Assembly: GCA_018385275.1 (NCBI GenBank)
Contig: JAHAZM010000061.1
Span: 1-44,802, forward strand
Length of the DNA stretch: 44,802 nucleotides
Reading direction: 5' to 3'
Source: Eubacteriales bacterium
GTDB taxonomy: Bacteria > Bacillota > Clostridia > Christensenellales > MB2-83
In this document: positions 23,158-23,747 of the stretch, one piece after another
How positions within the stretch are numbered: the stretch's first letter is position 1
How the letters are laid out: each line of letters starts with the position of its first letter
The notes under the pieces: model-generated
Seen by the model: only the letters and a program-made list of their open reading frames with translations
What the model was told of the DNA's origin: nothing
Database searches by the model: none
Program-made: the position numbers and the translations under genes

Positions 23158-23747
23158 GGTGGTGCAGTATCCTAGTCGGTTGTATCGCATCTGAGGGCGG
23201 GGCTAAAAATCCGCTGAAGGGCACATCGATGAAGTTCTTGGTGCGGGCCTTTTACGCCCAGTTTAGGGTCCGTGCTGAGAGTTAAGAAAGAAGGGCATCC
23301 CGCAATGGCATGCGGACCTTGACCCAGCTTTCGTGGAGACTCAATATGGTGCGTATCGGTAACGGTCGAACGTACTGTTTGAGGTTGAAACCTGCTATGC
23401 GGTGAAAGATTGTTTTTTTGCTGTGTACAGAGTAGCCTGCCTTGAGTGGAATGCGTGGATCCGGGAACCACTCTCCGTTCCTTTGGCCAAAGGGGCGGGG
23501 CGATTGCCTGTTGAAACCTACTCTGCAAAAGAGGCTAAGATGTGATGTCGCCGTTGAGGAAAGCTCCTAGGCTGTTCATTGAGATGTATCGGGGATTATA
23601 GTGTGGACTAAGTGGTAATTCAGTCGCAAAACGGGCGACCGTTTGCCGGGCTCTTTAAAGGGAAACCGCTCAAGTGGCGACACGGAGTAGAAAACGGGGA
23701 AATCCTACTGAACCTAAGCCGCAAGGTTTACTCGATACATCACCACC
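23158..23747 (+). ncRNA. ole: OLE RNA (ornate, large, extremophilic RNA)
   Basis: ~590-nt non-coding stretch closed by long-range pairing ggtggtg-ca-gtatc (23158-23171) with gatac-at-caccacc (23734-23747). It also has a hairpin-rich conserved-looking 3' part (gtggcgacacggagtagaaaacggggaaatcctactgaacctaagccgcaaggttt) and lies immediately upstream of an OapA-like gene and dxs, the known OLE context. Confidence 0.92.

What the first reader, a model, noticed from the sequence alone, without database searches (positions are those of the whole stretch)
23158..23747. OLE RNA: a ~590-nt structured non-coding RNA
Seen directly: a stretch of about 650 nt with no credible ORF between the GNAT-like gene and a membrane-protein gene. 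Its ends pair over the full length: ggtggtg..gtatc (23158-23171) with gatac..caccacc (23734-23747). Internal hairpins include gtcgc-aaaacgg-gcgac, agtag...ctact and aacc-taagccgc-aaggtt. Established knowledge: OLE RNA is one of the largest highly structured bacterial ncRNA classes. It sits between ispA/xse genes and dxs in certain Firmicutes and forms a membrane RNP with OapA, linked to alcohol, cold and Mg2+ stress phenotypes. This is a known class rather than a new one, but it is rare and its core biochemical function is unresolved.
Basis: partly seen in the sequence, partly recalled or inferred. Interest (0 to 1): 0.9.

Follow-up and report, generated by a model that had tools for sequence, protein, structure and literature searches.

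The report
A standard OLE RNA with OapA
This is an ordinary, complete copy of OLE, a known ~600-letter bacterial RNA that sits at the cell membrane with the protein OapA and helps cells through stress; its presence here is expected, though nobody yet knows what OLE RNA does chemically.

Summary
Confirmed: window 23143-23762 (+) is a full-length OLE RNA (Rfam RF01071, 501.1 bits, model 1-616 of 616, E 3.5e-144). OapA, its obligate partner, starts 22 nt past the RNA (23770-24318). It keeps the invariant D103xxxD107 and is predicted to have a CNNM-type transmembrane fold. dxs, tlyA, nadK, argR and recN follow. The same genome carries the OapB-, OapC- and bS21-type partners and, as published for OLE bacteria, shows no MpfA/CNNM exporter other than OapA (genome 87% complete). 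In 78 of 80 fetched OLE loci OapA lies directly downstream; the two exceptions run off the contig. Its inner extension (gtatc/gatac) and the three quoted local hairpins pair no better than shuffles; those segments belong to other helices. I also recovered P2 and P3, which the RF01071 structure line leaves unpaired but the published model has. P3 changes sequence freely yet stays at 11-17 bp, compatible with the published membrane-spanning proposal. OLE is not rare: 2,822 Bacillota genomes in a 2024 survey. Ordinary new member of a known class.

The parts
23143..23762 (+). OLE RNA, full-length match to RF01071 (RNA body about 23158-23747)
   Evidence: cmscan 501.1 bits, model 1-616/616
23094..23122 (+). 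promoter-like site TTGATT-17-TATAAT; a second TATAAT lies at 23135-23140
   Evidence: TATAAT occurs within 60 nt upstream of P1 in 51 of 80 OLE loci, about 2.9 expected
23158..23164 (+). P1 5' strand, pairs with 23741-23747
   Evidence: 94.3% of cells paired, 5/7 pairs with double changes, shuffles max 87.1%
23741..23747 (+). P1 3' strand
23165..23175 (+). P2 5' strand (23165-23167 and 23171-23175), pairs with 23567-23574
   Evidence: 100% of cells paired, 4/8 pairs with double changes
23567..23574 (+). P2 3' strand
23178..23192 (+). P3/P3.1 5' strand, pairs with 23538-23552 (14 bp with one mismatch in the window)
   Evidence: own duplex mean -13.3 vs swapped partners -5.1 kcal/mol; 10/10 tested pairs covary; length 11-17 bp in 93 RNAs
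23538..23552 (+). P3/P3.1 3' strand
23203..23213 (+). L4 A-rich loop region (CTAAAAATCCG); published A-A dimer contact B1 site
   Evidence: motif present; role from PMC12286853
23483..23490 (+). L9.3 loop TTGGCCAA with palindromic GGCC; published kissing-loop B3 site
   Evidence: GGCC in 72 of 93 aligned RNAs; role from PMC12286853
   Evidence: 98.5% cells paired, 10/10 pairs covary
23634..23639 (+). GGCGAC loop, first of two (published OapB-binding P12.2/P13 region)
   Evidence: role from PMC9723947
23676..23681 (+). GGCGAC loop, second copy
   Evidence: GGCGAC in 67 of 93 aligned RNAs
23761..23765 (+). Shine-Dalgarno AGGAG of oapA, 4 nt before the ATG
   Evidence: sequence
23770..24318 (+). 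oapA, 182 aa membrane protein with invariant D103xxxD107
   Evidence: 5155 homologs; weak CNNM match; alignment; model pLDDT 85.5 whose six best PDB matches are all CNNM proteins
24331..26178 (+). dxs
   Evidence: TIGR00204 699.7 bits
27856..28308 (+). argR, reported as linked to the OLE RNP in H. halodurans
   Evidence: PMC12265935

Best explanation
A standard full-length OLE RNA gene (ole) in an uncultured clostridial bacterium. It is transcribed from its own sigma-70-type promoter just after the GNAT gene. The RNA folds so that its two ends pair (P1, P2); an elongated stem (P3) joins the dimer-forming 5' domain to the end domain. It is bound by the CNNM-like membrane protein OapA encoded immediately downstream, and by OapC (YbxF), OapB and probably bS21 encoded elsewhere in the genome. 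By analogy with Halalkalibacterium halodurans, the membrane RNP protects cells against stresses such as cold, alcohols and elevated Mg2+; in this genome it stands where other Bacillota use MpfA exporters. Shown here: family membership, partner genes, P1-P3 covariation, promoter conservation, no detected MpfA. Inferred: expression, membrane localisation, stress role. The core biochemical activity of OLE remains unknown in any organism.
For: RF01071 full-length hit, single copy in the genome. OapA immediately downstream here and in 78/80 OLE loci, the other two truncated by contig ends; 20/20 OapA loci tested have OLE upstream. OapA D103/D107 invariant. CNNM fold. OapB candidate between map and infA matches PDB 'OLE-associated protein B' E 7e-5; YbxF ortholog between rpoC and rpsL E 6e-12; bS21 and Spo0A present; only CNNM match in the genome is OapA. 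P1, P2, P3 covary in 93 RNAs. TATAAT upstream in 51/80 loci.
Against: No expression or phenotype data. The OapB match is weak by sequence (26 bits), though its gene order fits. The genome is 87% complete, so absence of MpfA is provisional. Foldseek E-values for OapA vs CNNM are 0.014 and above (probability 1.0 for the best).
Confidence: 0.97

Rival explanations
1. A decayed OLE relic: sequence similarity persists but the RNA no longer works.
For: 24 of 61 genomes of the order have no detectable OLE, so losses do happen.
Against: All model positions are matched at 501 bits, the best score among the 61 genomes of the order searched; P1, P2, P3, L4, L9.3 and both GGCGAC loops are intact; oapA is intact with invariant residues.
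Confidence: 0.02
2. A long structured 5' UTR or riboswitch-like leader of oapA-dxs rather than a free ncRNA.
For: It lies directly upstream of oapA in the same direction, 22 nt before its ATG, with no strong intrinsic terminator between them.
Against: In H. halodurans OLE is a processed, abundant ~630-nt RNA acting in trans with proteins encoded elsewhere (PMC9723947); conserved ends pair as P1 just before the oapA ribosome-binding site.
Confidence: 0.05

Closest known systems
OLE RNA (Rfam RF01071), full-length type
   Same: Full model length, score 501 bits, conserved loops, oapA directly downstream, dxs nearby, OapB/OapC genes in the genome, no MpfA found.
   Different: Nothing essential. 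Sequence is at most about 71% identical to the other 92 aligned OLE RNAs; upstream gene is a GNAT rather than ispA/xse.
OLE variants 1 and 2 (TANB77, RF39 clades; PMC11332333)
   Same: Same class and conserved cores.
   Different: Variants shorten or lack P7/P8 and often lose the OapB site; the window keeps P7, P8, P9 and both GGCGAC loops.
MpfA/CorC (CNNM) Mg2+ exporters
   Same: OapA is predicted to share the CNNM transmembrane fold.
   Different: OapA has no CBS or CorC domains and is encoded with an RNA.

Membership tests
OLE RNA (RF01071) | Covariance-model match above gathering score over full length | tested here: met
   501.1 bits vs 50, positions 1-616
OLE RNA (RF01071) | End-pairing helices P1-P3 of the published model | tested here: met
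   Covariation in 93 sequences
OLE RNA (RF01071) | Dimer-contact loops: A-rich L4, palindromic L9.3 | tested here: met
   CTAAAAATCCG at 23203, TTGGCCAA at 23483
OLE RNA (RF01071) | oapA adjacent | tested here: met
   23770-24318
OLE RNA (RF01071) | OapB and OapC in the genome (common, not universal) | tested here: met
   OapC E 6e-12 to YbxF; OapB E 7e-5; gene order
OLE RNA (RF01071) | bS21-binding anti-Shine-Dalgarno mimic in P6 | not tested
   bS21 gene present; the RNA site was not tested
OLE RNA (RF01071) | Abundant ~600-nt membrane-bound RNA, stress phenotypes | not testable with these tools
   needs RNA-seq, imaging and mutants
OapA | CNNM-like transmembrane protein with the essential DxxxD pair (D100/D104 in H. 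halodurans) | tested here: met
   D103, D107 invariant; CNNM fold is the only confident structural match

The most novel reading that the evidence does not exclude
In this lineage the OLE-OapA complex is the cell's only CNNM-type Mg2+ handling system: OapA supplies the transmembrane transporter half and OLE RNA replaces the missing CBS/CorC regulatory domains, with P3, whose sequence drifts but whose length is held at 11-17 bp, as the membrane-spanning rod.
Probability: 0.12. Interest if true: 0.8.

Novelty: new member of a known kind. Interest (0 to 1): 0.22.

Why it matters
As a single instance it adds one lineage to a class already seen in thousands of genomes. OLE itself matters as one of the largest conserved bacterial RNAs without a known biochemical function and a proposed membrane-spanning RNA. 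The useful by-products here are covariation support for P1-P3, which the Rfam structure line omits, and the observation that P3 keeps its length while its sequence varies freely.

Tried and rejected
PDB sequence search with OapA: no match, replaced by a model and a fold search. Terminator scan: only weak sites, one of them inside oapA's coding sequence, given no weight. A mention search did not establish whether this genome was in the published OLE survey. The numbering P1/P2/P3 follows the published text; the papers' figures are not held, so exact published boundaries could not be compared base by base.

Full report
Identity. A scan of the whole window against all Rfam families gave one hit: RF01071 (OLE) at 23143-23762, + strand, 501.1 bits against a gathering score of 50, model positions 1-616 of 616, E 3.5e-144. 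It is the only copy in the genome.

Surroundings. The RNA starts about 60 nt after the stop of a GNAT gene (21976-23097) and ends 22 nt before an ATG at 23770. The 182-aa membrane protein there has 5,155 relatives in the protein database, an invariant D103xxxD107 corresponding to the D100/D104 pair studied in H. halodurans OapA (PMC9723947), and a weak match to the CNNM domain (17-19 bits; 43 of 47 relatives match it). An AlphaFold2 model (pLDDT 85.5) has CNNM/CorB/CorC structures as its six best PDB matches (TM-score 0.59 to the query for 7m1t_A, probability 1.0; E-values only 0.014 and up). This is OapA. dxs, tlyA, nadK, argR and recN follow.

Linkage elsewhere. Of 80 OLE loci fetched with flanks, 78 have OapA directly downstream on the same strand; the other two contigs end within 150 nt of the RNA. 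Starting instead from OapA, all 20 loci tested have OLE just upstream. OLE was found in 37 of 61 genomes of the order and 88 of 197 of the class, so it is patchy but common; a published survey lists 2,822 Bacillota genomes (PMC11332333).

Partners in the same genome. A KOW protein between map and infA matches the PDB entries named OLE-associated protein B (E 7.4e-5). An L7Ae-type protein between rpoC and rpsL matches YbxF (E 6e-12), the ortholog of OapC. A second L7Ae-type protein lies directly upstream of an infB-like gene, as YlxQ does. bS21 and Spo0A are present. The only CNNM-domain match in the genome is OapA itself, fitting the published anticorrelation of OLE with MpfA (PMC11332333), with the caveat of 87% completeness.

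Structure. I aligned 93 OLE RNAs. The inner five base pairs are coincidence: their 5' side is nearly invariant while the 3' side varies to follow 23583-23592, with which it forms a helix paired in 98.5% of cells, every pair covarying. P2 (23165-23175 x 23567-23574) pairs in all cells. P3 (23178-23192 x 23538-23552) covaries; its strands bind each other far better than strands swapped between species (-13.3 vs -5.1 kcal/mol). RF01071's structure line leaves P1-P3 unpaired, but the published model includes them (PMC12265935), so this is confirmation and not discovery.

P3 and the membrane. A 2025 review argues from cryo-EM models that P3/P3.1 crosses the membrane and that about 14 bp would be needed (PMC12265935). 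In my set P3 has 11-17 bp (mean 13.7; 14 in the window) and strand-length standard deviations of 0.6 and 1.2 nt, while P7 and P8 have standard deviations of 19 and 8 nt. P4, P5 and P6 are equally constant in length, so the result is compatible with the proposal but does not single it out.

Expression. TTGATT-17-TATAAT lies at 23094-23122 and a second TATAAT at 23135-23140. Across 80 loci 51 have an exact TATAAT within 60 nt upstream of P1, against about 2.9 expected from flanking sequence. OLE therefore very probably has its own promoter, as reported for H. halodurans (PMC9723947).

Mechanism. Shown: an intact OLE gene with its partner set. Inferred from H. halodurans work: the RNA dimerises through its 5' domain, is held at the membrane by OapA, and helps the cell withstand cold, alcohols and Mg2+. 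The chemical function of OLE RNA is unknown in any organism, and nothing in this window settles it.

Verdict. It is an ordinary new member of a well-described class.

Noticed in passing
window 21582-21821 (-): A 79-aa Leu/Gly/Asn/Cys-rich small ORF on the strand opposite to the operon, with no Pfam or NCBIfam match; possibly a small envelope or spore-surface protein, possibly not a gene.
   Followed up: partly
RF01071 vs window 23158-23747: The Rfam OLE structure line leaves the 5' 53 positions unpaired, so P1, P2 and P3 are missing from the model although all three are supported by 93 aligned sequences.
   Followed up: yes
L023 (G002:C2), downstream of OLE: The OapA frame is 402 aa long, with a roughly 200-residue acidic, low-complexity N-terminal extension not seen in the other OapA frames read; the start codon was not resolved.
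   Followed up: no
L157 (G029:C13:9146-9976): An 831-nt OLE RNA with large insertions in the P7 and P9 regions, still matching RF01071 full length at 351.8 bits.
   Followed up: no
G051 vs G027 (same genus g28): Small (0.8-0.9 Mb), near-complete genomes of one genus differ in having OLE or not, a natural pair for asking what replaces it.
   Followed up: no
window 16800-20418: A pyr cluster (pyrD, pyrF, pyrE, pyrB, pyrI by sequence reading) lies upstream of the GNAT-OLE-oapA-dxs block; not checked against family libraries.
   Followed up: no
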